DNA from: Fusobacterium massiliense
Lineage (GTDB): Bacteria; Fusobacteriota; Fusobacteriia; Fusobacteriales; Fusobacteriaceae
Assembly: GCF_900095705.1 (NCBI RefSeq)
Contig: NZ_LT608327.1
Span: 248,001 to 312,000, forward strand
Reading direction: 5' to 3'
DNA: 64,000 nt
Each line of letters starts with the position of its first letter. Positions within the stretch are counted from its first letter, which is position 1. The translations under genes were made by a program, and so were the position numbers. Below, piece by piece: positions 1,340 through 51,740 of the stretch. A model generated the notes under the pieces. The model had not been told where the DNA came from, made no database searches, and worked only from the letters and a program-made list of their open reading frames with translations.

Positions 1340-1447
1340 TATAGGAAAGTATAAAATTAAATAAAGAAAATTAGTCTCTGACGTCCGTATTAGTTCGAAG
1401 AGCCTATGTTCATTGAGCTCGTAGAACTCATACGGCTGTCAAGAGAC
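1340..1447 (+). repeat. Dispersed arm-plus-hairpin element, copy 1 (in the metNIQ leader)
   Basis: The arm (1340-1373) begins TATAGGAAAGTATAAAATTA. The 74-nt hairpin (1374-1447) opens with GTCTCTGACGTCCGTAT and closes with ATACGGCTGTCAAGAGAC. The outer stem is GTCTCT/AGAGAC, GAC/GTC and CCGTAT/ATACGG; the inner stems are AGTTC/GAACT and GAGC/GCTC. The arm starts 10 bases after the riboswitch terminator T-run, and the hairpin ends 26 bases before metN. It is therefore part of the read-through leader of the methionine operon. Confidence 0.9.
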
Positions 1448-1473
1448 TTTAATTTATAGCAGAGGGAGGAAAA

Positions 1474-2481
1474 ATGATAGTACTTGAAAATGTGAACAAG
1501 GTCTATCCAAATGGCTTACATGCTGTTAAAGATGTAAGTTTAAAAGTTAAAGAAGGAGATATTTTTGGAATAATCGGTCTGAGTGGTGCTGGTAAATCTT
1601 CTCTTATAAGACTTATAAACAGATTGGAAGAACCTACAAGTGGAAAAATAATTATTAATGATCAAGATATTTTGAGCCTTAATAAAAGCCAACTTTTAGA
1701 AAGAAGAAAAAAAATAGGAATGATATTTCAACATTTCAACCTTTTATCTTCAAGAACAGTTGAAGAAAATGTAGCTTTTTCTCTTGAAATTGCTAATTGG
1801 AATAAAAAAGAAATAAAAAGTAGAGTAGCAGAGTTATTAGAAATTGTTGGTTTGAGTGATAAGGCAAAATACTATCCTAGTCAATTAAGTGGAGGACAAA
1901 AACAAAGAGTTTCCATAGCAAGAGCTTTGGCAAATAATCCAGATATACTATTATCTGATGAAGCAACTTCAGCATTAGATCCAAAGACAACAAAATCTAT
2001 ATTGGAGCTTATAAAAGAAATACAACAAAAATTTTCTTTAACAGTGCTTATGATAACACATCAAATGGAAGTTGTTAAGGAAGTTTGTAATAAGGTAGCT
2101 ATAATGTCAGATGGAAGGATTATTGAAGAAGGTAATGTTCATCATATATTTACTGAGCCAAAAACAGATGTAGCTAAAGAATTAATTTCATATGTACATC
2201 AACAATCAGATACAGAAATTAATTATATGCATAATAAGGGTAGAAATATAGTTAAAGTTAAATTTATTGGAAGTACAGCAAATGAACCTATAATTTCTAA
2301 AGTTATAAAAGAATGCGGAATAGATGTAAGTATTTTAGGAGGCTCTATAGATAAGCTTTCAACAATGAATATAGGACATTTATATCTTGAGTTAAATGGA
2401 GAACTAGAGGCACAAGAAAAAGCTATAGAGCTTATGAGAAATATGGATACAATAGTAGAGGTGATATATAATGGAGATTAG
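1474..2481 (+). CDS. metN: Methionine ABC transporter ATP-binding protein
   Basis: This 335-residue protein is the ATPase of the MetNIQ importer and powers D/L-methionine uptake at the inner membrane. Visible motifs are Walker [10 protein letters not shown] (residues 35-43), a Q-loop near 86, the ABC signature LSGGQKQR (138-145) and Walker B ILLSDEA (158-164). After the ATPase core, residues about 255-335 form the NIL domain, which in E. coli MetN binds methionine and inhibits transport. The start follows a strong GAGGGAGG ribosome site. It is the first gene after the SAM riboswitch and overlaps metI by 11 bases, showing translational coupling. Confidence 0.95.
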
Positions 2482-3172
2482 TGCTATACTTGAACCCTTG
2501 TTTGAAAATGTAGAGAATCCAATAATAAGTATGTTGGTTATATCTACTGTAGAAACATTGTATATGGTTTTATTTTCAACATTATTTTCATTGATATTAG
2601 GGTTTCCTTTAGGAGTTTTACTTTTGGTAACTAAACCTGGAAATATTTATGAAATGAAAAAATTTAATGCAATTTTAGAAGTTGTAATAAATGCTTTAAG
2701 ATCTTTTCCATTTATTATCTTGATGATATTGTTATTTCCTTTATCAAGATTTGTAGTGGGAACAACTATCGGATCTACAGCAGCAATAGTGCCACTATCT
2801 ATTGGAGCAGCTCCATTTGTTGCTAGAATTGTTGAAGGGGCATTATTAGAAGTTGATCCAGGTCTTGTAGAAGCAAGTCAAAGTATGGGAGCAAATAATA
2901 AAACAATAATATTTAAAGTTATGCTTCCAGAATGTTATCCTACTCTTATTCATGGAATAACAGTTACAATAATTAGCTTAATAGGTTATTCAGCTATGGC
3001 AGGAACTATAGGAGCAGGAGGACTTGGAGACTTAGCTATAAGATTTGGATATTTAAGATTTAAATTAGATATTATGGTATATTCAATAATTATTATCATA
3101 ATACTTGTTCAAATCATACAATCAGTTGGTAATTTTATTGTACATAGAAGACAGAAAAAACTAGGAAAATAA
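2471..3172 (+). CDS. metI: Methionine ABC transporter permease
   Basis: This 233-residue inner-membrane permease has about five hydrophobic segments and a binding-protein-dependent transport motif ([17 protein letters not shown], residues about 136-152). That loop contacts the ATPase MetN. Length and content match MetI. Its ATG lies inside the 3' end of metN and metQ follows 16 bases downstream, so the three genes form one riboswitch-controlled operon. Confidence 0.95.
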
Positions 3173-3188
3173 AATAGGAGGTAAAAAT

Positions 3189-3977
3189 ATGTCTAAAAAA
3201 TTTGTAAAATTATTCGGAAACATTGGTGCATTTTTATTATTATCTGTGGGAGCATTTGCTGGAACTTTAAAAGTTGGAGCAACACCAGTTCCACATGCAG
3301 AACTTTTAAATTTAGTGAAAGCTGATTTAAAGAAAGAAGGAGTAGATTTAAAAATAGTTGAATTTACAGATTATGTAACTCCAAACTTAGCATTATCAGA
3401 TAAAGAAATTGATGTTAACTTCTTCCAACACAAACCTTATTTAGATAAGTTTGTTGAAGAAAGAAAATTAAATTTAGTTTCATTAGGTAATGTTCATGTT
3501 GAACCAATTGGGTTATATTCTAAAAAAGTTAAATCAGTTAATGAATTAAAAAATGGATCTACTATTGCTATACCAAGTGACCCATCAAATGGAGGAAGAG
3601 CTTTAATATTATTACATAATAAAGGTATTATTACTTTAAAAGATCCTAAAAATCTATTTGCAACAGAATTTGATATAGTTAAAAATCCTAAAAAATTAAA
3701 ATTTAAACCAACAGAAGTTGCTCAATTACCAAGAGTTTTACCTGATGTAACTGCTGCTGTTATAAATGGAAACTATGCATTAGAAGCTGGATTAAACCCA
3801 ACAAAAGATTCTATATTACTAGAAGGAAAAGAATCACCTTATGCAAATATAGTTGTTGTTAGAAAAGGTAGTGAAAAGAATCAAGATATCCAAAAATTAT
3901 TTAAAGCATTACGTAGTGAAAAAGTTAAAAACTTTATAAACAAAAAATACAATGGAGCTGTTGTAGCTGCATTCTAA
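3189..3977 (+). CDS. metQ: Methionine-binding periplasmic protein
   Basis: This 262-residue substrate-binding protein of the NlpA/MetQ family delivers methionine to MetNI. The N-terminus is a signal peptide with a likely signal peptidase I site (AFA before GTLKVGA). Conserved family stretches follow: TPVPHAELL, NFFQHKPYL, IAIPSDPSNGGRAL and YALEAGLNP. Many MetQ proteins are lipoproteins, but no lipobox cysteine is present and the protein has no cysteine near its N-terminus, so it is probably soluble in the periplasm. It has its own AGGAGG site and is followed by an intrinsic terminator. Confidence 0.93.
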   Translation: MSKKFVKLFGNIGAFLLLSVGAFAGTLKVGATPVPHAELLNLVKADLKKEGVDLKIVEFTDYVTPNLALSDKEIDVNFFQHKPYLDKFVEERKLNLVSLGNVHVEPIGLYSKKVKSVNELKNGSTIAIPSDPSNGGRALILLHNKGIITLKDPKNLFATEFDIVKNPKKLKFKPTEVAQLPRVLPDVTAAVINGNYALEAGLNPTKDSILLEGKESPYANIVVVRKGSEKNQDIQKLFKALRSEKVKNFINKKYNGAVVAAF

Positions 3978-4000
3978 AGATAGTTTAATATTTTAAAAGA

Positions 4001-4046
4001 AAAACTACTATAATTTGATAAAATTTATCAATTATAGTAGTTTTTT
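4001..4046 (+). terminator. Intrinsic terminator of metNIQ
   Basis: AAACTACTATAATTTGATAA pairs with its complement ending ATAGTAGTTT, a near-perfect stem of about 20 bp with a tiny loop, followed by TTTTTT. It starts 24 bases after the metQ stop codon. Confidence 0.85.
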
Positions 4047-4066
4047 AATTTGCAGGAATATATTTT

Positions 4067-4174
4067 GTCTCTGACGTCCGTATTAGTGCGAAGAACCTAT
4101 GTTTATTGAGCTCGTAGAACTCATACGGCTGTCAAGAGACTAATCTTTGCTATTTAATTTTATACTTTTCTATA
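4067..4174 (-). repeat. Dispersed arm-plus-hairpin element, copy 2
   Basis: The hairpin (4067-4140) reads GTCTCTGACGTCCGTAT ... ATACGGCTGTCAAGAGAC on the plus strand. The arm is on the right (4141-4174), as the reverse complement of TATAGAAAAGTATAAAATTA. Relative to the arm, the hairpin is inverted compared with copy 1. The arm faces the terminator of the minus-strand UPF0371 gene. The apical stem has AGTGC where most copies have AGTTC, a mismatch. Confidence 0.88.
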
Positions 4175-4180
4175 GAGTGA

Positions 4181-4228
4181 AAAAACTGTACACTTAATTT
4201 TAAAAATTAATATAAGTGTACAGTTTTT
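4181..4228 (-). terminator. Intrinsic terminator of the UPF0371 gene (bidirectional in form)
   Basis: AAAAACTGTACACTT (4181-4195) pairs with AAGTGTACAGTTTTT (4214-4228), and the inner AATTTT/AAAATT bases extend the stem. On the minus strand it ends in a T-run just after the stop codon at 4237. Confidence 0.8.
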
Positions 4229-4236
4229 ATTTAGAG

Positions 4237-5751
4237 TTATTGATTATAGTATAAATTTTCAGTTGGGAAAACTTGATCTGATGTGACATCAATTCCTAAT
4301 TTTCTAAGTGATTGTTCATCATTTCTACCTAAAATGTGTGTTGAATGAGCTTGAACTCCTTCAAGTTTAGATAATTTTGATAATGCAACTTCAGCCATAG
4401 AGTTAGTTGCAGCAGTAATACTTAATGCAATTAAAATTTCTTCACAATCTAAAGGTATATTTTTATTTTTTAAAGTTGTTTCTTTTAATTTTATAATTGG
4501 TTCCAATATTGTTGGAGATATTAAAAGTAATTCATCATCAAAATTAGATAAATATTTTAATGAATTTAATATAGCAGCTGAAGGAGCATCCATAAGTGAA
4601 CTTTTCTTTCCGGTAATTATTTTTCCATCTGGCATTTCAAAGGCAATCACAGATGATGTAAATTTTTTATTTTCTTCGTGTTCTTTATGAATAGATTCTA
4701 ATTTTTTTCTAGCATAATCAACAACTTTTCTATCTTCTTCTCTTAAGCCAAGACTATGCATTATAAACTCTGCTCTTTTAAAAGTTTCTAAATCGGCATT
4801 TCCTTTTTTATAATCACAACCTGTTTTAAAATATCTTCTTATAATTTCTTGTTCAGAAGCTTTTCTAACTATTTCATCGTTAATAATACCAAATCCTACC
4901 CTATTAACTCCCATATCAGTTGGAGATTGATAAATTGATTTTTTTCCAGTAATCTTTTCTATAATTCTTTTTAGTAAAGGAAAAGCTTCTATATCTCTAT
5001 TATAATTAATTGCAATTTCGTTATATTCTTCTAAATGAAAAGGATCAATCATATTAACATCGTTAAGGTCTACTGTTGCAGCTTCATATGCAATATTTAG
5101 AGGATGTTTTAAAGGAACATTCCATACTGGGAAAGTTTCAAACTTAGAGTAACCTACATTTCTTCCTCTTTTATATTCATGGTAAAGTTGACTTAAACAA
5201 GTAGCTAATTTACCACTTCCAGGACCCGGAGCAGTAACAACAACTATAGGTTTAGTTGTTTCAATATAAGCATTTTTTCCATATCCTTCATCACTAACAA
5301 TAGTATCTACATCACTAGGGTATCCTTTTGTAGCAAAATGTTTGTATACTTTTATATTTCTTCTTTCAAGTCTAGTAATAAAAAGGTCAGTAGAAGGTCT
5401 ATCTTCATATCTAGTTATAACTACACTATTAACTTTTAGATCATTTTCTCTTAAATCATCAATAAGTCTAAAAACATCCATATCATAAGTGATGCCGAAA
5501 TCTCCTCTTATTTTGTTTCTTTCAATATCTCCAGCATAGACACAGATAATAACTTCTATCTTATCTTTTAATTTATTTAAGACTTTAATCTTTGCATTCT
5601 CATCAAAACCAGGTAAAACCCTTTTTGCATGAAAATCTCCTAAAAGTTTTCCCCCAAACTCAATATACAACTTATCATAGTTATTAACTCTTTCTAGTAT
5701 ATACTTAGTTTGTTCTTCTAAATATTTGTTGTGATCAAATCCTACTTTCAT
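4237..5751 (-). CDS. UPF0371 / DUF1846 family protein
   Basis: A 504-residue soluble protein of the DUF1846 (UPF0371) family, widespread in anaerobes, with no settled biochemical role that I know of. It has a conserved P-loop-like stretch [19 protein letters not shown], then [17 protein letters not shown] and [12 protein letters not shown], all hallmarks of this family. The chosen start is the ATG at 5751, preceded by GGAGG four bases away. A longer frame to 5805 would add 18 hydrophobic residues without a ribosome site and is rejected. It is a single gene with its own terminator. Confidence 0.88.
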
Positions 5752-5847
5752 ATAACCTCCAAAAAGTAAAAATAAAATAATAAATAAAGCCAAGCTGTCT
5801 GCCATTAATATTATTTAAACTTAAGTTATGGTCATCACGACAGTTAA

Positions 5848-5878
5848 AGTTTTTATAATTATATAATTATAAAAAACT
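5848..5878 (-). terminator. AT-rich hairpin after the EamA transporter gene
   Basis: AGTTTTTATAATTAT (5848-5862) pairs with ATAATTATAAAAAACT (5863-5878) with one bulged base and almost no loop. It lies 3' of the minus-strand transporter gene and 5' of the UPF0371 gene. There is no clear T-run after it, so it could be a weak terminator or a DNA-level palindrome. Confidence 0.4.
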
Positions 5879-5925
5879 GACTTTATATTTTAGCATGAAA
5901 AATATATTTTGTGAATAGTATTAAC

Positions 5926-6798
5926 TTAATTTTTTGTCTTATTAAAAATGAACATACCTAGAATAATTAAAAAACCTCCGATAAAAGTAGAAAGTTTTGG
6001 AATATCATTAAGAAATAAAATTCCCATTATTGTTGCAAGTACAGGAGTAACGAACATAAATGTAGTAACTTCAGCTGTATTTTTTGCAAGTTGAAATGCT
6101 TTAGTCCATAAAAAATAAGAAACTATACTTGGGAATATTGACATATATATTATTAAAAGCAATGAAAATTTGCTAATAACAAAAATATTCTTAATTGAGC
6201 TTGGAGAGTAAAAAATTAACATTAATGAACCAAAAAGCATAGAGTACATACTTACATCAAAAGCAGAATATTTTTTTGTAAGATATCTTTGGCTTATGTT
6301 ATAAAGTGAAAGCAAAAGGGCAGCTATAAGCATATAGATAACTCCTATATTTATAGTAAGGCTTCCACCAGATAAAGTTAAAAATAAAATTCCTATAAAT
6401 GAAATTAAAAAAGAAAACCAACCTAACAATTTTATTTTTTCATTAAATAAAATAGAAGCAAAAGTAGCAGTAATAGCCGGACATAATGAGTTGATAACAC
6501 TCAATGTAGCAGGACTTGTGTAGACTGTTGCAATATTAAATAAAACAACATAAGCTCCATAACCTGAAAAACCAGCAAATAAAAAAGTTGGTAAATCCTT
6601 AAGGGCTGGAAATTTTATTTTTTTCTTAAATAGTATAATTAAAACAATGATAGTAGCAAAAAAATATCTGAGTACACCTAAGGTATAAGGATCAATTTCT
6701 TTTAAAAGAAATTTTGTGCTAATAAAAGCTGTTGCCCAAAAAAATATTGCAATAAAAGCCGTAAACTTAGCACTTTGTTTTAAGTGGCAAAAATTCAT
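5926..6798 (-). CDS. EamA / DMT-superfamily transporter
   Basis: A 290-residue inner-membrane protein with ten hydrophobic segments in two related halves, as in EamA (drug/metabolite transporter) carriers. Typical features are FFWATAFISTKFLL in the first helix, a LRYFFATIIVL second helix, and PVLATIMGILFLND in the second half. Such carriers usually export amino acids or other small metabolites; the substrate cannot be read from the sequence. The start at 6798 has GGAGG seven bases upstream; an upstream ATG at 6825 lacks such a site. It is a single gene on the minus strand. Confidence 0.8.
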   Translation of the reverse strand: MNFCHLKQSAKFTAFIAIFFWATAFISTKFLLKEIDPYTLGVLRYFFATIIVLIILFKKKIKFPALKDLPTFLFAGFSGYGAYVVLFNIATVYTSPATLSVINSLCPAITATFASILFNEKIKLLGWFSFLISFIGILFLTLSGGSLTINIGVIYMLIAALLLSLYNISQRYLTKKYSAFDVSMYSMLFGSLMLIFYSPSSIKNIFVISKFSLLLIIYMSIFPSIVSYFLWTKAFQLAKNTAEVTTFMFVTPVLATIMGILFLNDIPKLSTFIGGFLIILGMFIFNKTKN

Positions 6799-6956
6799 AT
6801 CTATTCCTCCATAATTTGTTTTCATAAATACATTATAATTTCTTTTGAAATAAATAGCTAGTATCAGAAAAAATAAAATTAATTTTAAGTAGATAAAGAT
6901 ATTCGTTTTTTTATTTTTATGATAAAATATAATAAAAATTGAAAGAGAGAAATCAA

Positions 6957-8255: not shown

Positions 8256-8260
8256 AAAAT

Positions 8261-8289
8261 TTGCTTTATTTTAAATAATATGTTATAAT
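8261..8289 (+). promoter_or_regulatory. Promoter of the rimP-nusA-infB operon
   Basis: TTGCTT (8261-8266) and a perfect TATAAT (8284-8289) are 17 bases apart, just after the Nudix gene ends. Transcription would start about 70 bases before rimP. Confidence 0.7.
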
Positions 8290-8304
8290 TATCTTATAAT
8301 AATA

Positions 8305-24525: not shown

Positions 24526-24572
24526 AAAGAGCTATTGCAATTTTTTTAAAATGCAATAGCTCTTTTTTTGTT
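24526..24572 (+). terminator. Intrinsic terminator after the LOG gene
   Basis: AAAGAGCTATTGCA (24526-24539) pairs with TGCAATAGCTCTTT (24552-24565), followed by TTTTTG and further T. The arm of a dispersed element begins at 24574, directly after the T-tract. Confidence 0.88.
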
Positions 24573-24573
24573 T

Positions 24574-24676
24574 TATAGGAAAGTATAAATTTAATATGAA
24601 AATTACTCTCCGACGTCCGTATTACTCTGGAGAGCATTTCGGTGAGCTTGGAAGAGTCATACGGCTGTCAGGAGAC
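24574..24676 (+). repeat. Dispersed arm-plus-hairpin element, copy 3 (71-nt subtype)
   Basis: Arm 24574-24605 (TATAGGAAAGTATAAATTTA), hairpin 24606-24676. The outer stem is shared with other copies, with TCTCC/GGAGA instead of TCTCT/AGAGA. The apical part is a different subtype: ACTCT/AGAGT instead of AGTTC/GAACT, with an ATTTCGGT loop. These paired changes keep the helices. Confidence 0.88.
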
Positions 24677-24776
24677 TTTATTTATTTTAAAAAATAATAA
24701 AATTTTATTTAAAAATTATAAAAAAAGATACAAAATTTGTGATATAATAAATAATCAAAAAAAATAGAGGTAATAG

Positions 24777-28683: not shown

Positions 28684-28698
28684 TGCATAGTTAAAAAA

Positions 28699-28803
28699 CT
28701 CTCTGATGTCCGTATTAGTTCGAAGAACCTATGTTCATTGAGTTCGTAGAACTCATACGGCTGTCAAGAGACTAATAACTATTTTAAATTATACTTTCCT
28801 ATA
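28699..28803 (-). repeat. Dispersed arm-plus-hairpin element, copy 4
   Basis: Hairpin 28699-28772, arm on the right 28773-28803 (reverse complement of TATAGGAAAGTATAATTTAA). Here the apical GAGC/GCTC pair of other copies is changed to GAAC/GTTC, a compensatory change. It is the only full copy without an intrinsic terminator beside its arm. It separates lptG from the M16 peptidase gene. Confidence 0.88.
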
Positions 28804-28830
28804 GAATAAATGAAAGAAGAAAGGAATAAA

Positions 28831-34338: not shown

Positions 34339-34342
34339 ATTC

Positions 34343-34446
34343 TATAAGAAAGTATAAAAATAAATAGCAAAATTAGTCTCTGATGTCCGTATTACTCTGG
34401 AGAGCATTTCGGTGAGCTCGGAAGAGTCATACGGCTGTCAGGAGAC
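34343..34446 (+). repeat. Dispersed arm-plus-hairpin element, copy 5 (71-nt subtype)
   Basis: Arm 34343-34375 (TATAAGAAAGTATAAAAATA), hairpin 34376-34446. It is the same apical subtype as copy 3 (ACTCT/AGAGT, loop ATTTCGGT). Its inner pair is GAGC/GCTC where copy 3 has GAGC/GCTT. Confidence 0.88.
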
Positions 34447-34537
34447 TATATTTATATAAAGAAAATCTAAAACTTTTAATATATTTCATAAATTAAAATA
34501 TTTTATAAAAAAAAATTATCTCTATTAAATAATTTAC

Positions 34538-42029: not shown

Positions 42030-42055
42030 GACTGGAGAATTTCCAGTCTTTTTTT
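42030..42055 (+). terminator. Intrinsic terminator after the ABC cluster
   Basis: GACTGGA (42030-42036) pairs with TCCAGTC (42042-42048), with a flanking A-T pair, followed by TTTTTTT. The arm of a dispersed element begins at 42057. Confidence 0.88.
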
Positions 42056-42056
42056 C

Positions 42057-42164
42057 TATAGGAAAGTATAAAATTAAATAATAAAAGTTGGTCTCTGACG
42101 TCCGTATTAGTTGGAAGAGCCTATGTTCATTGAGCTCGTAGAACTCATACGGCTGTCAAGAGAC
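42057..42164 (+). repeat. Dispersed arm-plus-hairpin element, copy 6
   Basis: Arm 42057-42090 (TATAGGAAAGTATAAAATTA), hairpin 42091-42164. It is nearly identical to copy 1, differing mainly by a G in the apical stem (AGTTG). Confidence 0.9.
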
Positions 42165-42281
42165 TTGTTATTTTACTGTATTTTTATTAGAATATAAGTA
42201 AGAATTTTTTTAATTTATACTTAATATAAAATATGGTATACTTAATATAAAAATTTTAAAAATAAATATTTAGGAGGAATT

Positions 42282-42816: not shown

Positions 42817-45381
42817 ATGAAAAAACAAAAGATATCAATTTACCTTTTGCTAATTTTAGGATTGTATTCTCAAACTTTTGCAGATGTAACAGATTATGTA
42901 AAAGTAAATTCAACAAGTGGTAATGCTAATGCAGCATTGAAAGATTCCGTAGCTATAGGAAATGGAGCTTCAGTAACACCTGAAGGTGGAGCTGGAACAA
43001 ATGGTATAGCAATAGGAACAAATGCTAGATCACATGTAATGACTAATGGTAATCATGAAAAAATAATAGTATTCGGAAGAACTCAAAATGAATTACCTGG
43101 TGGAATAGCAATAGGGAAAGATACACATGCTCGTATCGGAAATGTTGAGCTTGGAAATAGAGATTATAGAGGAAAAATTGGAGATTTTGATTTAGCTGGA
43201 AAAGATAATTTGAATGTAACTACAGGGATAGGTTCAACAGCAGTAGGAGACAATTCTTATGCTATGGGAAATTTTCAAAGTATTAATGGTGCATATAATG
43301 TCATTACAAAATCAGAAGATGTTTCAACAGCAGCTTGGGCAGGTAATATAATTAATAGAGGAATAAATGCTCTTCGTAATGCAGGAGGAGCCGTTCAGGG
43401 AATGGCTTCTACCATAAATGGAACTTTTAATAGCATAGAAGCTAATGAGGAGTTAAATGGAAATACTTTTGCACTTTTTGGAGATGGTCAACCAGCTAGT
43501 GGTCTTATGTATTCAGGTTTTTCTTCAACAATAGTGGGTTCGGCTAATAGAATCAATAAGAGTAATGGTTCATTGATTGTAGGAAGTGGAAATGAAATTA
43601 CTAATTCATATATTACACCTACTTCAAGAGTAGTAATAGATTCTTTATCAACAAGTGTTCCGTTTTTGGGACGACTAACATTAGACCCAACTGTAAAAAC
43701 AGGTTCAGTTAAAGAATTGGCAGATTCTTTTAGAAAATATGCACAAGAAAATAAACTGGCTTCTGTTGGAGTAGTAGGGGGTGCAAATAAAGCTGATTAT
43801 TCTCTGTTTACAAATATCACAGGAGTTGGAAATACAGTAGTAGGAAAAGGTGGAAGTAACGGTAATAGATTAGCTTTAGATGACTCAAATACAAGATATA
43901 ATTCCAGAGAAGAATATACTAATTTTTCAGCTTTTAATAATTTAACAGGATATGAAAATACAGGAGAAAATATCTATCATTCATATATAGCAGGTGCACA
44001 TAATACAATAAAAAATGCAGAAAAAAATATTATTATGGGAAATAATCATAATATAAAAGGAATAGATGAAAATAATGTTAAAACAAAAGGAAATATATTA
44101 ATAGGTTTTAATGATAAAGCAACAGAAATTGCTGCAACATCTACAGAAGCCTTAGAAAATACTATTGGGCTAGGGAATAATAACTTAGTTAAGGCTAGTA
44201 ACTCAATAGCACTAGGGAATAATATAAATATAGATAGTAAAAATACTCAAGTATTAGGAAACAATATAGGAACTAAAGCAGATGGGACAACTTTTTCTAC
44301 AGTAGAAAATTCAGTTTATTTAGGAACAAATTCAAATGTTACTTTAGGAGCTGCTGTTGGAACTAAAAATAAAGATAAAGAAAATGAAGATGGTTCAACA
44401 ACAACAGCTGGGGCAACTGGGAAAGTAGAAAACGTAACAGTAAACGGAGTAACTTATGGAAATTTTGCTGGTGCAGAAGCTAAGGGGGCTGTATCAGTAG
44501 GTTCGGCTGGAGAAGAAAGAAGACTTCAAAACTTAGCTGCTGGAGAAATTTCTAAAACATCAACAGATGCAATAAATGGTTCTCAATTATATAGTGTTAT
44601 TGATAAAGTAAAAACAGATCTTTCAAATATAAATGCTGGAACAATAAAAATAGAAAGTGGAAGTGATAATGTTATTATTAATTCTACTGAAAATGCAGGC
44701 AAAGGAAAAGATTATGTAATAGATATTAATAAGAACTTAAATGTTGAAACAGTAAAAGCAGGAGATGTTACACTATCAACAAATGGTATAGATGCAGGAA
44801 ATAAAAAAATTACAAATGTTGCTAAGGGTACAGATGATACTGATGCAGTTAATGTTAGTCAACTAAGAGAAATTAAAAATAATATTAATGAAGAAGTTGT
44901 GAGAGTTAAAAATGAAAGTAGAGGAATAGGAGCTGGAGCTGCAGCTCTTGCAGCTTTACACCCAATGCAATATGATAGAAATAAGCCTAATCAAATAATG
45001 GCAGGTTTTGGTAATTATAAAAATAAACATGCAGTAGCAGTTGGAGTGGCTCATTATTTCACAGAAAATTTAATGGGAACAGCAGCTATATCATTAACAG
45101 AAGAAAATAGAACTAATTCAATGATAAATTTCGGTTTAACTTGGAAGTTTGGGAAAAAAGATGATAGAGATAATATGCCAGATGAATATAAACAAGGACC
45201 ATTAAATGCAATTTATAAAATGCAAGAAGATTTAGTGGCATTGAAGTCAGATGATACTAATTTTAGAGAAGAAAATATTGAATTGAAAAAAGAAATATCT
45301 GTTTTAAAAGAAGAATTAAAAATTCAAAAATCTAAAATGGAAATTTTAGAAAAACAAATGAAACAACTATTAAAAAAATAA
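42817..45381 (+). CDS. YadA-like trimeric autotransporter adhesin with C-terminal tail
   Basis: An 854-residue surface adhesin. Signal peptide residues 1-22 (cleaved after TFA). The passenger has YadA head repeats (GSTAVGDNSYAMG, SIALGNN, GIAIGTNA), with an insertion (about 170-310) rich in Gly/Asn. A neck and stalk follow (VSVGSAGEERRLQNLAAG, DAINGSQLY), then the YadA anchor (from about 700: GAGAAALAALHPMQY to SMINFGLTWKFG at about 779). Unlike typical members, which end at the barrel, it continues for 75 charged residues predicted as coiled coil. Intrinsic terminator downstream. Confidence 0.9.
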   Translation: MKKQKISIYLLLILGLYSQTFADVTDYVKVNSTSGNANAALKDSVAIGNGASVTPEGGAGTNGIAIGTNARSHVMTNGNHEKIIVFGRTQNELPGGIAIGKDTHARIGNVELGNRDYRGKIGDFDLAGKDNLNVTTGIGSTAVGDNSYAMGNFQSINGAYNVITKSEDVSTAAWAGNIINRGINALRNAGGAVQGMASTINGTFNSIEANEELNGNTFALFGDGQPASGLMYSGFSSTIVGSANRINKSNGSLIVGSGNEITNSYITPTSRVVIDSLSTSVPFLGRLTLDPTVKTGSVKELADSFRKYAQENKLASVGVVGGANKADYSLFTNITGVGNTVVGKGGSNGNRLALDDSNTRYNSREEYTNFSAFNNLTGYENTGENIYHSYIAGAHNTIKNAEKNIIMGNNHNIKGIDENNVKTKGNILIGFNDKATEIAATSTEALENTIGLGNNNLVKASNSIALGNNINIDSKNTQVLGNNIGTKADGTTFSTVENSVYLGTNSNVTLGAAVGTKNKDKENEDGSTTTAGATGKVENVTVNGVTYGNFAGAEAKGAVSVGSAGEERRLQNLAAGEISKTSTDAINGSQLYSVIDKVKTDLSNINAGTIKIESGSDNVIINSTENAGKGKDYVIDINKNLNVETVKAGDVTLSTNGIDAGNKKITNVAKGTDDTDAVNVSQLREIKNNINEEVVRVKNESRGIGAGAAALAALHPMQYDRNKPNQIMAGFGNYKNKHAVAVGVAHYFTENLMGTAAISLTEENRTNSMINFGLTWKFGKKDDRDNMPDEYKQGPLNAIYKMQEDLVALKSDDTNFREENIELKKEISVLKEELKIQKSKMEILEKQMKQLLKK

Positions 45382-45398
45382 TTTTTTAACTTAAAATA

Positions 45399-45430
45399 AA
45401 AATGTAGGAAGATAATTCCTACATTTTTTT
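45399..45430 (+). terminator. Intrinsic terminator of the autotransporter gene
   Basis: AAATGTAGGAA (45400-45410) pairs with TTCCTACATTT (45417-45427), followed by T. The arm of a dispersed element starts at 45432. Confidence 0.88.
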
Positions 45431-45431
45431 C

Positions 45432-45539
45432 TATAGGAAAATATAAAATTAAATAGCAAAAATCAGTCTCTTGACAGCCGTATGAGTTCTACGAGCTTAG
45501 TAAACACAAGCTCTTCGAACTAATACGGACGTCAGAGAC
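45432..45539 (+). repeat. Dispersed arm-plus-hairpin element, copy 7 (hairpin inverted)
   Basis: Arm 45432-45465 (TATAGGAAAATATAAAATTA) and hairpin 45466-45539 reading GTCTCTTGACAGCCGTAT ... ATACGGACGTCAGAGAC. Relative to the arm, the hairpin is inverted compared with copies 1, 3, 5 and 6. Its apical stem is a perfect GAGCTT/AAGCTC on the opposite strand, changed in a paired way from other copies. Confidence 0.88.
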
Positions 45540-45682
45540 TTTTTTATATGCTTAAATATTTTATTAGAGTGGTACTTATTATTTCAATTTAAGAGGAAAT
45601 TAAAAAGATTAAATATTTATAGCATTTTTTAATAAATTATGCTATTATGAACTGTTAATATTATGTTATTTAGGAGAAAAAT

Positions 45683-48600
45683 ATGTATCTAAAAGCTGTT
45701 GAAATAAATGGATTTAAATCTTTTGGAGAAAAAGTATATATAGAATTTAATAGAGGTATAACAGCAATAGTTGGTCCAAATGGTAGTGGTAAATCCAATA
45801 TTTTAGATGCTGTTTTATGGGTGTTGGGGGAACAGTCATACAAAAACATAAGAGCAAAAGAAAGCCAAGATGTTATTTTCTCAGGGGGAAAAGATAAAAA
45901 ACCTGCTAATAAAGCAGAAGTATCTTTGATTATAGAAAATAGTGACAGATATTTAGATTTTGATGAAGATATTGTTAAAATTACAAGAAGAATACATATA
46001 ACAGGAGAAAACGAGTATTTAATAAATGATAGTAGAAGCAAACTAAAAGATATAGGTGCTTTATTTTTAGATACTGGAATAGGAAAAACAGCTTATTCTG
46101 TTATAGGGCAAGGAAAGGTTGAGAGAATAATAAATTCATCTCCCAAAGAAATTAAGAATATAATAGAAGAAGCAGCAGGGATAAAAAAATTACAATTTAA
46201 TAGAATAGAAACTCAAAAAAATCTAGCTAATATTGAAATAAATTTAGATAAAGTTGAGTTTATTCTGAATGAAACAAGAGAAAACAAAAATAAGATTGAA
46301 AAACAAGCAGAAATTGCAGAGCAATATTTAAATTTAAAAAGCGAGTTAAACTCTTTATCAAAAGGAATAGCTACAACTGAACTTTTTGTTAAGGAAAATA
46401 CTTTTTCTGAACTTGAAATAAAAATTAGTGATAAAAATAAAGAGTTGACAGAAAATCAAAATGATTTAAATAAAACATTAGATAGATTAGAAAATATTTA
46501 CACTGAAAAGGAAGATATAAAACAAGAAAAAGAAAGAATTGATGCTAAGAATAGAGAGCTTAAAGATTTTATTTCTGGCTTAGAAAAAGAACAAGCAGTT
46601 GCAAAAACAGAAATATCTAATTATGAAAAGTCAAAAAATATAAAAGAACAAGAAAAAATTTCTTTAAATGAAAAAATTAAAAAATTAAATGAAGAAAAAG
46701 AAGAGCATATTCTTAATAAAGAGAAAATTCAAAAAATTATTAAAGATTTAGAAGAGGAAAATACTCTGTACGACACAGAAATTTCTAAATTAGAGAAAGA
46801 GGAACAAGAGAAAAAAGACTTAAATGAAAATAGAAACTCTAAGATTAGAGATTTGGAGCTTGACAAACAAAGAGCAAGTCAAGATATTGAAAATAATGAG
46901 AAAAATTTAAAAAACTATCAAAGTCAAATAGAAAATTCTGATATCGAATTAGAAGAATTAAATAAGAAAAAAGAAGAATTAAACAAAAAGCTAGAAAATA
47001 AGAACAAAGACTTGGAAGTAAAAATATCCGAAGTAGCTAAAATTGAAGAAAGAAGTGATTTTTTAGCAGAACAATTGAGTGAATTAGGAAGAAATATAAA
47101 TAAAATTTCAAGTGTATGTCAAGAATTCTCATATCAAGAAAAAAATGCAAGTGGTAAGCTGGAAGCATTGAAGAGACTAGATGAAAACAATGAAGGTTTA
47201 TTTAAAGGAGTTAAAGAAGTTTTAGCAGCTAATATTTCTGGAGTTTATGGGGTACTTGTTTCACTTATTGATTTTGACAGTAAATTTGAAAAAGCAATAG
47301 AAGCAGCAGCAAGTGGAAATTTACAAGATATAGTTGTTGAAAATAAAGAAGTTGCTAAAAAAGGTATAGCTATACTTAATGAAAAAAAAGTTGGTAGAGC
47401 TTCATTCTTAGCATTAGATACTATAAAAGTAAATAAGAAAAATTTTAATAATACAGGTATATCTGGAGTGTATGGACTAGCTAGTAGTATAGTCAGGGCT
47501 GATAATAAATATGCTGATGTTATTGATTTTGTTTTTGGAAATATACTAATTGTTGAAAATATAGATGTAGCAACAGAAATTTTATCAAAAAATCAATTTT
47601 GGGGAAATATTGTGACCTTAACAGGAGAGCTTTTGAGTTCAAGAGGTAGAATTACTGGAGGAGAAAATCAAAAATCTACAATTAATCTTATATTTGAAAG
47701 AAAAAAAGAAATAAGAGAGCTTGAAGAAAAAGTATTGAATTTAAAAAAAGAGATAGAAAAAAATACTCAGAAAAGAGAAGAACTTGCTATAAAATTAGAA
47801 AAATATGAAAATGAGTATGATGAAAGTGATACATTAAAAGAAAATTGTGAAAATCAGAGAGATATTTTAAAGTCTGAAATAAAAGACTTAGAACTTGAGT
47901 TTAAAAATATTGAAAAAGATATTCATAGAACAGAATTTAATAAAACAGAAGCTGAGAGATACAAAACAGATTATACAAATAAAATATCATCTTATAGCAC
48001 GAGTATAGAAATGTTTCAAAGTCATATTGATACTCTTATAAAAGAAAGAGATGAAGATGATAAATCCTTGAAAGATATTATAGCAAAAAAAGAAGAATTT
48101 CATAAGTTATATTCTGAGAAAAGAATTATCTATCTAAATAATAAAGATAAATTAGACCAATGGGATATCCAAAATAATAGATTATTAGAGAGAGAAAATG
48201 AGTATTACGAAGAAAATAAAAAGAATGAAAGAGAGCTTTCAGACTGTGTTAATTCTATTTTGGAGTTAGAAGATAGGGAAACTGAACTTGCTAGTCAAAT
48301 AGAAGAGATGAATCAAAAATATAATAATGAAAATAAAGATATTGAGATACTAACACATAAAGCAAAAGACTTAGATGATGAAGAAAGAGATTTAAGCAGA
48401 AAAAAATCTTCATTGGAAACAAAAGTTTTACACTTAGATAATGAGTACAAGCAACTTATTGAAGCTAAAAGAAAAGTTGATGAAGAAATAGAAAATTTAA
48501 AACTTAAATTAGAAGAGCTTATTGATATTATTGAAGAGAAAGTTGAAGTTGAAAATTTAAAACAAAAAAAGGATAAGCTAAAAAATCTTGAAGGAAAGTA

Positions 48601-49234
48601 TAATAATTTTGGCTCTGTAAACATTGATGCTATACAAGAATTTAAAGAATTAAATGAAAGATATGATTTTCTTGCTACTGAAAGAGATGATATTATGAAG
48701 TCTAAAAAACAAGTTCTTGATTTAATTCAAGAAATTGATGAGAGAATTCATAATGATTTTTATGCTACTTATGAGCAAATAAGTGAAAATTTCTATAAAA
48801 TGTGTGATGAAACTTTAAGAAATACTGAGGGTAGATTAAATATTATTAACGCAGAAGATTTTGAAAATTGTGGTATAGAAATTTTTGTAAAGTTTAAAAA
48901 TAAGAAAAAGCAACCTTTATCATTGTTATCTGGTGGAGAAAAATCTATGGTTGCAATAGCTTTTATAATGGCGATATTTATGTATAAGCCTAGTCCATTT
49001 ACATTTTTAGATGAAATAGAAGCTGCTCTTGATGAAAAAAATACAAGAAATTTACTAGCTAAACTTAGAGATTTTACAGATAAATCTCAATTTATACTTA
49101 TAACACATAATAAAGAAACAATGAAAGAATCTGATAGTATGTTTGGTGTAACAATGAATAAAGAGATTGGGATTTCTAAGATTGTATCTCCAGATAGAAT
49201 AAGAAAGATTATGAATGAAATTAAGACTGAATAG
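45683..49234 (+). CDS. smc: Chromosome segregation/condensin protein SMC
   Basis: An 1183-residue SMC ATPase for chromosome compaction and segregation. The N-terminal Walker A is GPNGSGKSN (residues about 32-40). Two long coiled coils (about 170-490 and 660-1000) flank a hinge domain (about 505-640, with GVYGVLVSLIDFDSKFEKAI). The C-terminal head has signature LLSGGEKSM and Walker B FTFLDEIEAALD. Length is standard. A nearby inverted repeat (ATAGCAT/ATGCTAT at 45619-45645) overlaps its likely promoter. lpxK follows after nine bases. Confidence 0.96.
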   Translation: MYLKAVEINGFKSFGEKVYIEFNRGITAIVGPNGSGKSNILDAVLWVLGEQSYKNIRAKESQDVIFSGGKDKKPANKAEVSLIIENSDRYLDFDEDIVKITRRIHITGENEYLINDSRSKLKDIGALFLDTGIGKTAYSVIGQGKVERIINSSPKEIKNIIEEAAGIKKLQFNRIETQKNLANIEINLDKVEFILNETRENKNKIEKQAEIAEQYLNLKSELNSLSKGIATTELFVKENTFSELEIKISDKNKELTENQNDLNKTLDRLENIYTEKEDIKQEKERIDAKNRELKDFISGLEKEQAVAKTEISNYEKSKNIKEQEKISLNEKIKKLNEEKEEHILNKEKIQKIIKDLEEENTLYDTEISKLEKEEQEKKDLNENRNSKIRDLELDKQRASQDIENNEKNLKNYQSQIENSDIELEELNKKKEELNKKLENKNKDLEVKISEVAKIEERSDFLAEQLSELGRNINKISSVCQEFSYQEKNASGKLEALKRLDENNEGLFKGVKEVLAANISGVYGVLVSLIDFDSKFEKAIEAAASGNLQDIVVENKEVAKKGIAILNEKKVGRASFLALDTIKVNKKNFNNTGISGVYGLASSIVRADNKYADVIDFVFGNILIVENIDVATEILSKNQFWGNIVTLTGELLSSRGRITGGENQKSTINLIFERKKEIRELEEKVLNLKKEIEKNTQKREELAIKLEKYENEYDESDTLKENCENQRDILKSEIKDLELEFKNIEKDIHRTEFNKTEAERYKTDYTNKISSYSTSIEMFQSHIDTLIKERDEDDKSLKDIIAKKEEFHKLYSEKRIIYLNNKDKLDQWDIQNNRLLERENEYYEENKKNERELSDCVNSILELEDRETELASQIEEMNQKYNNENKDIEILTHKAKDLDDEERDLSRKKSSLETKVLHLDNEYKQLIEAKRKVDEEIENLKLKLEELIDIIEEKVEVENLKQKKDKLKNLEGKYNNFGSVNIDAIQEFKELNERYDFLATERDDIMKSKKQVLDLIQEIDERIHNDFYATYEQISENFYKMCDETLRNTEGRLNIINAEDFENCGIEIFVKFKNKKKQPLSLLSGGEKSMVAIAFIMAIFMYKPSPFTFLDEIEAALDEKNTRNLLAKLRDFTDKSQFILITHNKETMKESDSMFGVTMNKEIGISKIVSPDRIRKIMNEIKTE

Positions 49235-49243
49235 GAGGGGAAA

Positions 49244-50248
49244 ATGAGAATATTATCATATATATATTTTTTAGTAACTTTGATGAGAAATTTTTTATAT
49301 GATAAAAAAATTCTGCCAATTAGAAGACTTTCAAATGTTAAAATCATTTGTATTGGAAATATAAGTGTTGGTGGAACAGGTAAAACTCCTGCTGTTCATT
49401 TTTTTGTAAAAAAATTATTAGCTGAAGGAAAAAAAGTAGCTGTTATTTCAAGGGGTTACAAAGGAAAAAGAAAAAGAGAGCCACTACTTGTGAGTGATGG
49501 AATGATTATTTTTGCAACATCACAAGAGAGTGGAGATGAACCATATATACACGCTTTAAATTTGAAAGTTCCTGTTATTGTGGGAGCAAATAGATATAAG
49601 GCTTGTAGTTTTGCAAAAAAACATTTTGATATCGATACCATAGTTTTAGATGATGGTTTTCAACATAGAAAACTTTATAGAGATATTGATGTTGTTTTAA
49701 TAGATGCAACTAATCCGTTTGGTGGTGGATATCTTCTACCACTTGGTTTACTTAGAGAGGATTTTAAAAATGCTGTAAAAAGAGCATCAGAATTTATAAT
49801 AACAAAAGCAGACTTAATTAATGAAAGAGAGCTAAAAAGAATTAAAAATTATTTTAAGAAAAAATTTAAAAAAGAAGTATCAATAGCTAAACATGGGGTT
49901 AGCAAACTTTGTGATTTAAAAGGGAATATGAAGCCATTATTTTGGGTTAAAGGAAAAAGAGTTTTAATATTTTCTGGCTTAGCAAATCCTTTAAATTTTG
50001 AAAAAACTGTAATTTCTTTAGCACCAAGCTATATAGAAAGAATAGATTTTAAAGACCATCATAATTTTAAAGCAAAAGATATTTCTTTGATAAAGAAAAA
50101 GGCTGAAAAAATGGAAGCTGATTACGTAATAACAACAGAAAAAGATTTGGTGAAATTGCCAGAAAATTTGAATATGAATAATTTGTATGTTTTAAAAATA
50201 GAGTTCTCAATGTTGGAAGATAACACTTTAAAGGAAATGAAAGGATAA
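49244..50248 (+). CDS. lpxK: Tetraacyldisaccharide 4'-kinase (lipid A pathway)
   Basis: A 334-residue membrane-associated kinase that phosphorylates the 4' position of the lipid A precursor. Family features are an N-terminal hydrophobic helix, the P-loop GNISVGGTGKTPA (residues about 38-50), SRGYKG, SGDEPY and DDGFQHRKL with conserved aspartates, and PLGLLRE. Shows that the organism builds lipid A. It starts nine bases after smc with GGAGGGG and is followed closely by a hypothetical gene. Confidence 0.95.
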   Translation: MRILSYIYFLVTLMRNFLYDKKILPIRRLSNVKIICIGNISVGGTGKTPAVHFFVKKLLAEGKKVAVISRGYKGKRKREPLLVSDGMIIFATSQESGDEPYIHALNLKVPVIVGANRYKACSFAKKHFDIDTIVLDDGFQHRKLYRDIDVVLIDATNPFGGGYLLPLGLLREDFKNAVKRASEFIITKADLINERELKRIKNYFKKKFKKEVSIAKHGVSKLCDLKGNMKPLFWVKGKRVLIFSGLANPLNFEKTVISLAPSYIERIDFKDHHNFKAKDISLIKKKAEKMEADYVITTEKDLVKLPENLNMNNLYVLKIEFSMLEDNTLKEMKG

Positions 50249-50255
50249 AAGACTT

Positions 50256-51029
50256 ATGAAAAAAGATAGTAAAGTTGTATTTTTAAATAATAAAAATATA
50301 GAATTATTGAAAAATAAGATATCTAAAGAGGGAAAATACAAAATTCTTTCTGAATTTGCTACTTTTTTTGAAAGAAGAACTTATTTTAAAGTAAATGAGT
50401 ATGGAGATGTAGCTCAGAAAGAGTATAATCCTATTTGTATCTTATTTTCTTTAACTGATAATGTAGAAAAATTAGCAGAATATATTTTTAAATACTCGTA
50501 CACTTATGAAAAGCAAAATATTAAAAAAATTGATAGAATGAGTAATTTGGAAATAAACGATTTAAAAAAAGGTCTTATGAAAACTCTTGTTGCATCTAAT
50601 TTAGATTTTTCTAAAAGATATGCAAAAGAGTTATTTTTAAGAGATAAAAAAACTTTTTTTGAAGTAGTTTATACTTTTGCAATGATGGGAAATCCACAAA
50701 ATATAAAGCTAATATATGCCTATACTATTGAAAAGATATTTGAGAATTTAGAATATGATGAAAATATATTTTATGTGTTAATAGCATACCTAACTAATTA
50801 TAAAGATGAGTTTTCAAAATACATCCAATCTTCTTCTAAACCATTGGAGATAAATGAAAATGAAATAAAAGAATATTCAATTGATAAAAAGCTATATTTA
50901 GATATTTTTAATAAAGTTTCTACAAAGTATGAATTAAAAAATATAAATAAATTTAAAAATTCTCTATACGAATATTTTAAAAAAGAATTTTTTTTAAATT
51001 CAGATTTAAAAGAGCTTCTAATTGGATAA
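50256..51029 (+). CDS. Hypothetical protein between lpxK and nadD
   Basis: A 257-residue protein I do not recognise. It has no signal peptide or membrane segment and is rich in Lys, Glu, Asn, Phe and Tyr. The middle (about 90-200) is predicted mainly helical, with the conserved-looking stretches SNLDFSKRYAKELF and MMGNPQNIKLIYAYTIEKIF, which could be a helical-repeat domain. It lies seven bases after lpxK and 12 bases before nadD in the smc operon, so it is likely expressed. The ATG at 50256 lacks a strong ribosome site. Confidence 0.75.
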   Translation: MKKDSKVVFLNNKNIELLKNKISKEGKYKILSEFATFFERRTYFKVNEYGDVAQKEYNPICILFSLTDNVEKLAEYIFKYSYTYEKQNIKKIDRMSNLEINDLKKGLMKTLVASNLDFSKRYAKELFLRDKKTFFEVVYTFAMMGNPQNIKLIYAYTIEKIFENLEYDENIFYVLIAYLTNYKDEFSKYIQSSSKPLEINENEIKEYSIDKKLYLDIFNKVSTKYELKNINKFKNSLYEYFKKEFFLNSDLKELLIG

Positions 51030-51041
51030 TGGGAGAATAAT

Positions 51042-51614
51042 ATGAGAATAGCAATCTATGGTGGAAGTTTTAATCCCATACACAAGGGACACGAGCAAAT
51101 TGTAGAATATATATGCAATGATAAAGAACTAAATATTGATAAAGTTATTGTTATTCCCGTGGGTATACCTTCACATAAAGAAAATACTCTCAAAGCTTCT
51201 AATGTAAGACTAGAAATGTGTAGAGAAATCTTTAAGGATAATCAGAAAGTTTTTGTTTCTGACATAGAAATAAAAGAAAGTAAGACTTCCTATACCTATG
51301 ACACTTTAATAAAAATAATAGAAATATATGGTAAAGAAAATGAATATTATGAAGTAATAGGTATGGATTCACTTAAAAATTTAAAAACTTGGAAAAATTA
51401 TAAAGAACTTTTAAAGCTTGTAAAATTTATTGTATTTAAAAGAAAAGACTATCTTTTAGATGAAATGGATAAAGATCTATTAGAAAATGACAGAGTAATA
51501 ATATTGGAGAATGAATATTATGATTTTTCTTCGACTGAAATTAGAGAAAGAATAAAAAATAAAAAAGATATATCTGATTTTATAAATCCAAAAATAAAAA
51601 AATTTATTTATTAG
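51042..51614 (+). CDS. nadD: Nicotinate-nucleotide adenylyltransferase
   Basis: A 190-residue enzyme that joins nicotinate mononucleotide and ATP to nicotinate adenine dinucleotide in NAD synthesis. It begins with GGSFNPIHKGHEQI, the nucleotidyltransferase (HxGH-type) motif, and ends with DFSSTEIRERI, the SSTxIR motif. The GMDSLKNLKTW stretch is typical of NadD. It is the last gene of the smc-lpxK unit. Confidence 0.93.
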   Translation: MRIAIYGGSFNPIHKGHEQIVEYICNDKELNIDKVIVIPVGIPSHKENTLKASNVRLEMCREIFKDNQKVFVSDIEIKESKTSYTYDTLIKIIEIYGKENEYYEVIGMDSLKNLKTWKNYKELLKLVKFIVFKRKDYLLDEMDKDLLENDRVIILENEYYDFSSTEIRERIKNKKDISDFINPKIKKFIY

Positions 51615-51634
51615 TATTTAAAATTTAAAATAAA

Positions 51635-51740
51635 GTCTCTTGACAGCCGGTATGAGTTCTACAAGCTCAATAAACACATGTTCTTGGAACTAATACGGAC
51701 GTCAGAGACTATTTTTTATTTAATTTTATATTTTCTTATA
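51635..51740 (-). repeat. Dispersed arm-plus-hairpin element, copy 8
   Basis: Hairpin 51635-51709 (GTCTCTTGACAGCC ... GGACGTCAGAGAC, with an extra G), arm on the right 51710-51740 (reverse complement of TATAAGAAAATATAAAATTA). Read from the arm, the hairpin has the same orientation as copy 1. The arm faces the terminator of the minus-strand autotransporter. The apical stem is changed to CAAG/CTTG in a paired way. Confidence 0.86.

What the first reader, a model, noticed from the sequence alone, without database searches (positions are those of the whole stretch)
1340..51740. Dispersed structured element with compensatory base changes (eight full copies)
Hairpins of 71-75 nt at 1374, 4067, 24606, 28699, 34376, 42091, 45466 and 51635 share an outer stem (GTCTCT-GAC..CCGTAT / ATACGG..GTC-A-AGAGAC). 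Between copies the stems change on both sides: AGTTC/GAACT becomes ACTCT/AGAGT, TCTCT/AGAGA becomes TCTCC/GGAGA, GAGC/GCTC becomes GAAC/GTTC, and another copy has GAGCTT/AAGCTC. Such covariation suggests selection on a folded RNA or DNA hairpin rather than drift of a dead repeat. I do not recognise the family; a REP/MITE-like mobile element or an intergenic RNA are both open.
Basis: seen in the sequence. Interest (0 to 1): 0.8.

Follow-up and report, generated by a model that had tools for sequence, protein, structure and literature searches.

The report
Mini rolling-circle transposon beside terminators
The eight look-alike hairpins are copies of one small, gene-less jumping element that appears to move by borrowing the enzyme of an IS91-type transposon and to land just behind the natural stop signals of transcription, which would explain how so many copies can pile up in a bacterial genome without breaking genes.

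Summary
In detail: eight related 73-77-nt hairpins with paired changes lie where stated. Each is half of a unit of about 120 bp: on one side a 24-nt box (TATAGGAAAGTATAAAATTAAATA) behind a T-run, on the other a short T-rich tail. In 857.8 kb of this genome there are 169 hairpins; 0 of 167 placed ones lie wholly inside a called gene. The box is the end 3' of the transposase gene of IS91-family elements: G000 has three IS copies with it, and in a genome of another genus 10 of 10 box matches lie 323-325 nt from a Y2_Tnp match. Full-length relatives sit directly behind terminator-like stems (27 of 31 flanks), and their other end is a hairpin plus TTTTTTTAT (33 of 34 flanks). Best reading: a non-autonomous IS91-family rolling-circle element, the box being the start end and the hairpin the stop end, inserting behind terminators. 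Stems and loops decay equally after insertion, while compensated changes are the more widely shared ones: selection acts on mobile masters rather than on resident RNAs. It is probably the unexplained 131-bp repeat reported in 2007 (not testable here). Transposition was not shown.

The parts
1336..1456 (+). unit 1: box core 1340-1363 (+), hairpin 1373-1448 (+, same orientation), tail; behind the terminator-like stem that follows the SAM riboswitch (aptamer 1190-1275)
4058..4178 (-). unit 2: box core 4151-4174 (-), hairpin 4066-4141 (flipped relative to box); behind a 16-pair terminator-like stem read on the - strand
24570..24685 (+). unit 3: box core from 24574 (+), hairpin 24605-24677 (same), ACTCT subtype; behind a terminator-like stem
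28690..28807 (-). unit 4: box core 28780-28803 (-), hairpin 28698-28773 (flipped); between LptF/G and M16 peptidase genes, no stem upstream; the site is empty in G016
34339..34455 (+). unit 5: box core 34343-34366 (+), hairpin 34375-34447 (same), ACTCT subtype; behind a terminator-like stem
42053..42173 (+). unit 6: box core 42057-42080 (+), hairpin 42090-42165 (same); behind a terminator-like stem
45428..45548 (+). unit 7: box core 45432-45455 (+), hairpin 45465-45540 (flipped); behind a terminator-like stem
51626..51744 (-). unit 8: box core 51717-51740 (-), hairpin 51634-51710 (same); behind a terminator-like stem, between convergent ORFs

Best explanation
The unit is a non-autonomous rolling-circle transposable element mobilised in trans by an IS91-family (HUH, two-tyrosine) transposase. 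The box is the start end (the end 3' of the transposase gene, called ori in IS91); the 75-nt hairpin with its T-rich tail is the stop end (ter). Shown here: the box is the end of IS91-family elements in this genome and in another genus; full-length relatives sit behind terminator-like stems and carry at their other end a hairpin followed by TTTTTTTAT; the small units have the same layout, polarity and target preference. Inferred: the transposase nicks at the box next to a target T-run, peels off one strand, and stops when it meets a hairpin followed by a T-rich tract. Because ter and target look alike (hairpin plus T-run), insertion goes behind any terminator or behind another copy, which gives tandem arrays. 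The stop signal is read as a structure, so stems may change if they stay paired and the hairpin may be inverted. After insertion the copies decay.
For: Box = IS end: three G000 IS copies carry the box at one end (one against the other two: 96% and 85% identical over about 1.1 kb); the transposase matches Zn_Tnp_IS91 (1.5e-23) and Y2_Tnp (1.2e-7) and NCBIfam IS91 family transposase above cut-off (128.1 against 125 bits). In G038, another genus, 10 of 10 box matches, all exact, lie 323-325 nt from a Y2_Tnp match on its 3' side; the reversed control pattern gives 0 in G000, G016, G017 and G038 and 2 in all 61 genomes. Target: 52 of 130 boxes in G000 directly follow a stem and T-run, against 63 of 832 other intergenic T5 runs and 58 of 1300 shuffles (Fisher 1e-19); 7 of 8 in the window. 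For IS in G028, G026 and G038, 27 of 31 distinct non-tandem flanks (shuffled 9%). Stop end: IS right ends are hairpin + TTTTTTTAT in 33 of 34 distinct flanks, one reading TTTTTTTAC, constant while left T-runs vary, so not a target duplication. Tandem arrays join right end to left end. Small units: conserved tail of some 7-8 nt, then none; 20 of 102 hairpins flipped with the same junctions. Empty sites in G016 at 3 of 4 distinct gene pairs, the fourth uninformative. Masters against residents: of 18 compensated variants 10 are in 5 or more copies, of 93 broken variants 10 are.
Against: No transposition was observed. No intact transposase was found in G000: the Y2_Tnp search of the whole assembly gave five matches, three with a TGA and two cut by contig ends, and the four copies that cover one Trp codon all carry TGA there. 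The 75-nt hairpin shares no evident sequence with the hairpins of the IS right ends (seen by eye); its role as stop end rests on position, tail and analogy. 78 of 130 boxes fail the terminator test, and 1 of 8 in the window has no stem. 56 of 169 hairpins have no detectable box, and four sit in an unrelated MITE. C>T exceeds G>A in paired G-C, 112 to 74, which would fit some RNA-level constraint. IS91's tetranucleotide target is not used.
Confidence: 0.82

Rival explanations
1. An intergenic regulatory or stabilising RNA element: the hairpin is selected as RNA, for instance as a 3'-end stabiliser or bidirectional terminator, and was spread by an unrelated route.
For: Very stable fold and covariation above shuffles; C>T (keeps G-U) exceeds G>A (breaks), 112 to 74, p 0.0065 without correction for relatedness; none wholly inside genes.
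Against: Stem and unpaired divergence equal (0.077, 0.083); A>G against T>C in A-U pairs is even, 21 to 19; hairpin flipped in 20 of 107; hairpin orientation relative to genes is mixed; many units lie behind a terminator-like stem, hence probably outside the upstream transcript; box is a transposon end.
Confidence: 0.08
2. A REP-like element moved by a Y1 (RAYT/IS200) transposase.
For: Palindromic, intergenic, in high copy number, sometimes in pairs or in tandem.
Against: Only one Y1_Tnp match in G000, in a 47-aa frame; the hairpin is about twice the REP size that I recall, and the flanking box belongs to Y2_Tnp elements.
Confidence: 0.04
3. Box and hairpin are two separate mobile elements: IS91-family derivatives made of the box, and an independent palindrome that inserted into them.
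For: Boxes without hairpin (23 of 130) and hairpins without box (56 of 169); hairpin inside an unrelated MITE in 4 copies; flips; G016 has boxes without this hairpin.
Against: Hairpin and spacer subtypes are linked: the TTTAATAT spacer accompanies 7 of 13 ACTCT hairpins and 1 of 67 AGTTC hairpins; spacing of 30-33 nt in 73 of 82 unflipped and 19 of 20 flipped units; same tail.
Confidence: 0.1

Closest known systems
131-bp intergenic repeat of Fusobacterium nucleatum (PMC1924603, passages read)
   Same: Length close to unit plus T-run, intergenic position; 17 places in one strain, 28 complete copies in another; no function was found.
   Different: Its sequence is only in a figure that is not held, so identity could not be tested; no IS link, terminator link or structure was described in the passages seen.
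ISFv1 of Fusobacterium varium (PMC5720691, passages read)
   Same: IS91-family IS of 1.44 kb, 47 insertions in the chromosome; G028 contig C1 has exactly the chromosome length given there (3,965,155), so the G028 elements are very probably ISFv1. Its left end resembles the box and its right end is hairpin + TTTTTTTAT.
   Different: It codes for a transposase; left end reads CTTAGGAAATTATAATTTG; the passages seen give no target or ends.
Mini-IS801 one-ended derivatives in Pseudomonas syringae (PMC3189936, passages read)
   Same: Short gene-less IS91-family fragments that keep the 3' (ori) end and move.
   Different: They end in a target-like tetranucleotide with no obvious palindrome; here the stop end is a long conserved palindrome and 169 copies were counted in half of the genome.
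Helitrons, Helraiser (PMC4778049, passages read)
   Same: Rolling-circle HUH element in which a hairpin near one end works as transposition terminator; its stem sequence could be exchanged with about 90% activity.
   Different: Eukaryotic, with a helicase; the loop sequence mattered there; no insertion behind transcription terminators in the passages seen.

Membership tests
IS91 family (as non-autonomous derivative) | Related element codes a HUH two-tyrosine transposase with zinc-binding domain | tested here: met
   Pfam and NCBIfam matches above cut-off; NPHIH and YLG(R/K)Y seen in the translations (motif meaning recalled). The unit itself codes nothing.
IS91 family (as non-autonomous derivative) | Two unlike ends, ori 3' and ter 5' of the transposase gene, no inverted terminal repeats | tested here: met
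   Box 3', hairpin 5' of the gene in G000, G028, G026, G038 copies read.
IS91 family (as non-autonomous derivative) | No target-site duplication | tested here: met
   Right-end T7AT constant (33 of 34) while left T-runs vary.
IS91 family (as non-autonomous derivative) | Target tetranucleotide such as GAAC or CAAG (from PMC3189936 for IS801) | tested here: not met
   Target is a T-run, mostly ending ATT, behind a stem. A sub-group difference; the transposase itself passes the family model.
IS91 family (as non-autonomous derivative) | Rolling-circle transposition in trans | not testable with these tools
   Tandem arrays fit it; no experiment.
REP elements with RAYT | Y1 transposase of the RAYT/IS200 type in the genome | tested here: not met
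   One Y1_Tnp match in a 47-aa frame.
Classical MITE of a DDE transposon | Terminal inverted repeats and target duplication | tested here: not met
   The two ends differ; conservation stops at the T-run and at the tail.
131-bp repeat of F. nucleatum | Same sequence | not testable with these tools
   Figure not held; near relatives seem withheld.
Known Rfam RNA family | Match above gathering score | tested here: not met
   Only the SAM riboswitch at 1190-1275.

The most novel reading that the evidence does not exclude
A structure-read transposition code: one HUH transposase group treats 'hairpin followed by a T-run' as the same signal at its own stop end and at its target. Intrinsic terminators are thus natural stop-end mimics, the element parks behind terminators, and any palindrome that keeps the shape can serve as stop end, so that a swappable, invertible 75-nt palindrome could multiply to one copy per five kilobases. 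Transposase output may in addition be held down by read-through of a single in-frame UGA.
Probability: 0.38. Interest if true: 0.8.

Novelty: new variant of a known kind. Interest (0 to 1): 0.62.

Why it matters
It gives an origin and a working model to an abundant intergenic repeat, probably the one reported in F. nucleatum in 2007 without explanation, and links it to a group of IS91-family elements that land behind terminator-like stems. If the model holds, it shows how a transposon can reach very high copy number with little harm, by reading the shape of host terminators, and it makes testable whether rolling-circle transposases stop at structures rather than at sequences. It also warns that covariation between copies in one genome can reflect selection during mobilisation and need not mean a functional RNA.

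Tried and rejected
Known RNA family: only the SAM riboswitch in the window. RAYT/REP: rejected. Plasmid and phage collections, distant blastn with unit 1: no match. IMG/VR exact patterns for hairpin and box: 0 and 0. The genome-contig scan with the M16 peptidase returned 11 loci, none titled as Fusobacteria (one is titled only 'bacterium'). Empty-site search in G016: 31 of 262 flanking genes had an ortholog in the 305 kb read; 5 rows, 4 distinct gene pairs; three are informative, the fourth (C5 near 374 kb) is too rearranged. An RNA-level test by G-U against A-C changes was ambiguous. The hypothesis that the hairpin alone is the mobile unit was weighed and kept as a rival.

Rows dropped: alignment A1 used 66 of the 72 full hairpins then known: one straddled a stretch end, two short ones and three of the four copies inside the MITE were left out by hand. 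One search used 136 of 156 full hairpins (ACTCT types set aside). Searches used 42 G026, G028 and G038 copies or arrays' worth of fetched stretches, not all matches; tandem flanks were set aside, and one of the four failures is the right end of a related IS.

Literature searches: no listed title or abstract start names IS91-family insertion behind terminators, and beyond PMC1924603 none names this repeat; full texts were not read for it except the passages cited, and most subscription journals are not held. PMC2817692 (RAYT) was seen in a search listing only.
Full report
OBSERVATION. The eight hairpins exist and fold as described. Each belongs to a unit of 116-121 bp: a 24-nt box behind a T-run, a hairpin that starts mostly 30-33 nt after the box start, and a 7-8-nt T-rich tail. 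The window holds seven box matches with up to three mismatches where 0.01 are expected; the box of unit 3 is found by profile. In 857.8 kb of the same genome (464 kb around the window and 393.8 kb of contig C5) nhmmer finds 169 hairpins (E up to 1e-5; 156 nearly full-length) and 130 boxes (E up to 0.01). By simple extrapolation that is some 350 hairpins in 1.81 Mb. None of the 167 hairpins that could be placed lies wholly inside a called gene (96 between co-oriented, 45 between convergent, 26 between divergent genes; gene calls are ORFs of 75 aa or more picked by length, not a trained predictor).

ANATOMY. 107 of 130 boxes are followed by a hairpin, 87 in the main and 20 in the flipped orientation; 23 boxes have none, and 56 of 169 hairpins have no detectable box. 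Flipped and unflipped units share spacing (30-33 nt in 19 of 20 and 73 of 82) and tail, as if the hairpin had been inverted in place. Two hairpin subtypes, AGTTC and ACTCT, are linked to spacer types: the TTTAATAT spacer goes with 7 of 13 ACTCT but only 1 of 67 AGTTC hairpins, so box and hairpin seem to travel together. Conservation stops at the T-run on the left and after the tail on the right. In 129 boxes with both neighbours, the upstream gene points at the box in 92.

TERMINATORS. In the window, 7 of 8 units begin behind a stem and T-run (by eye on folds); unit 1 follows the stem behind a SAM riboswitch, ahead of an ABC transporter gene with NIL domain, hence MetN-like. Over the sample, 52 of 130 boxes pass a stem-and-T-run test, against 63 of 832 other intergenic T5 runs and 58 of 1300 shuffled flanks (Fisher 1e-19). 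An earlier version of the test gave 46 of 130, 5.9% and 3.2%.

THE BOX IS A TRANSPOSON END. Two boxes without hairpin behind them, C6:521742 and C6:536902, open a repeat of more than 1.1 kb at 96% identity; a third copy at C6:238090 is 85% identical. The gene inside, read towards the box, matches Zn_Tnp_IS91 and Y2_Tnp and NCBIfam 'IS91 family transposase' above its cut-off. Y2_Tnp is found in 22 of 61 genomes of the family; G000 has 5 matches, two at contig ends; G016 and G017, the two other held members of the genus, have none. A 19-nt box core with up to one mismatch occurs 123 times in G000, 13 in G016, 2 in G017, 10 in G038 and once or twice in six more of the 61 genomes; the reversed control gives 2 in all, 0 in these four. 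All 10 in G038, which is of another genus, are exact and lie 323-325 nt from a Y2_Tnp match on its 3' side. In G016 and G017 boxes also tend to follow terminator-like stems, but carry another, degenerate body.

FULL-LENGTH RELATIVES SHOW THE PLAN. G028 (whose contig C1 has the length of the F. varium Fv113-g1 chromosome, so the IS is very probably ISFv1; and PMC5720691), G026 and G038 hold at least 45, 15 and 26 Y2_Tnp matches (45 is the number scored). In the copies fetched, the left end follows a stem in 27 of 31 distinct non-tandem flanks (shuffled 9%). The right end, 5' of the gene, is a hairpin followed by TTTTTTTAT in 33 of 34 distinct flanks and TTTTTTTAC in one (17 G028, 7 G026, 10 G038; the lists include tandem junctions and one flank cut by a stretch end). 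Left T-runs vary while the right T7AT does not, so it is part of the element. Tandem arrays in all three genomes place right end directly before left end, though one junction in the G028 array is different. The small unit repeats this plan: box, then hairpin, then T-rich tail.

MECHANISM. PMC3189936 (passages) states that IS91 transposition starts at the right end (ori), which is essential, and ends at ter or at sequences like it, and that short one-ended derivatives of IS801 move. PMC4778049 (passages) reports that in the rolling-circle Helitron Helraiser a hairpin near one end is the termination signal and that its stem could be exchanged. By analogy, the box is ori and the hairpin ter. The stem and T-run of host terminators is what ter looks like, so one recognition rule would cover stop end, target and tandem junction. 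The role of the hairpin, the trans mobilisation and the shared rule are inference; the ends, the target preference and the family of the transposase are shown.

COVARIATION. In 66 hairpins, 94.2% of cells pair and 52 cells change on both sides, against 15.0 by shuffling. But in 136 AGTTC-type copies the stems differ from consensus as often as the unpaired positions (0.077, 0.083). Of 18 compensated variants 10 are carried by five or more copies, of 23 wobble variants 13, of 93 broken variants 10. So pairing is kept in the lineages that multiply and lost in residents. C>T against G>A in G-C pairs is 112 to 74 (p 0.0065 without correction for relatedness), A>G against T>C in A-U pairs 21 to 19; the first would suit some RNA-level constraint and is a result against my reading. 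Template-switch repair of quasi-palindromes could also make compensated changes; the mismatches and bulged A that persist in most copies speak against it as sole cause but do not exclude it.

EMPTY SITES. Against G016 (73-75% identical in two genes), the LptF/G-M16 gap at unit 4 is 31 instead of 126 bp; at C5:18409 both genomes have a matching terminator-like stem, followed by the unit only in G000; at C6:452830 G016 likewise has a stem without unit. A fourth gene pair is uninformative.

NOVELTY. A 131-bp intergenic repeat of unknown function in F. nucleatum is in print (PMC1924603, passages); length and setting fit, the sequence could not be compared. IS91-family IS, ISFv1 and mini derivatives are known kinds. 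I found no report of IS91-family insertion behind terminators, or of a palindromic, invertible stop end in such a mini-element, in the listings of the searches made. I rate it a new variant of a known kind.

Noticed in passing
L044:8410-9621, L033:10242-11447, L045:5065-5892, L228 (G000); L242 (G038); L230-L234, L247-L257 (G028); L235-L237, L258-L261 (G026): Transposase frames of this IS group carry one in-frame TGA where relatives have Trp, at three different places: 4 of 4 G000 copies covering it, 18 of 18 G028 and 8 of 8 G026 frames examined, and a second G038 lineage (8 copies with 1 TGA, one of them read). The first G038 lineage has none (13 frames). Two G000 copies that share the TGA differ with dN/dS 0.17 (dS 0.48), as if the frame were still read through. 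One tRNA-Trp, anticodon CCA, in the 857.8-kb sample.
   Followed up: partly
C6:405458, 446436, 467751, 621709 (L038, L040, L041, L049): Four hairpins without box lie in a repeat, about 330 bp in three copies and shortened in one, with inverted ends; the outer stem is replaced by GCCCC/GGGGC while the inner hairpin and bulged A are kept.
   Followed up: partly
L121, L124, L127, L130, L133, L140, L143 and others (G016): G016 has a different dispersed repeat that starts with the same box, often behind terminator-like stems; about half of 14 aligned copies end in variants of AGCTGACGAAGTCAGCTTTTTTTA. It looks like a second non-autonomous family, in a genome without Y2_Tnp match.
   Followed up: partly
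window 1190-1456: A unit lies between a SAM riboswitch with its terminator-like stem and the MetN-like transporter gene that it should control; the extra 75-nt hairpin is in the leader.
   Followed up: no
window 42817-45381 and 51802-56727: A trimeric autotransporter adhesin (YadA stalk and anchor) and a 1641-aa ORF on the - strand with internal repeats.
   Followed up: no
G000:C6:365276-365389 (L051): A remnant of a Y1 (IS200-type) transposase in a 47-aa frame, the only Y1_Tnp match in the genome.
   Followed up: no
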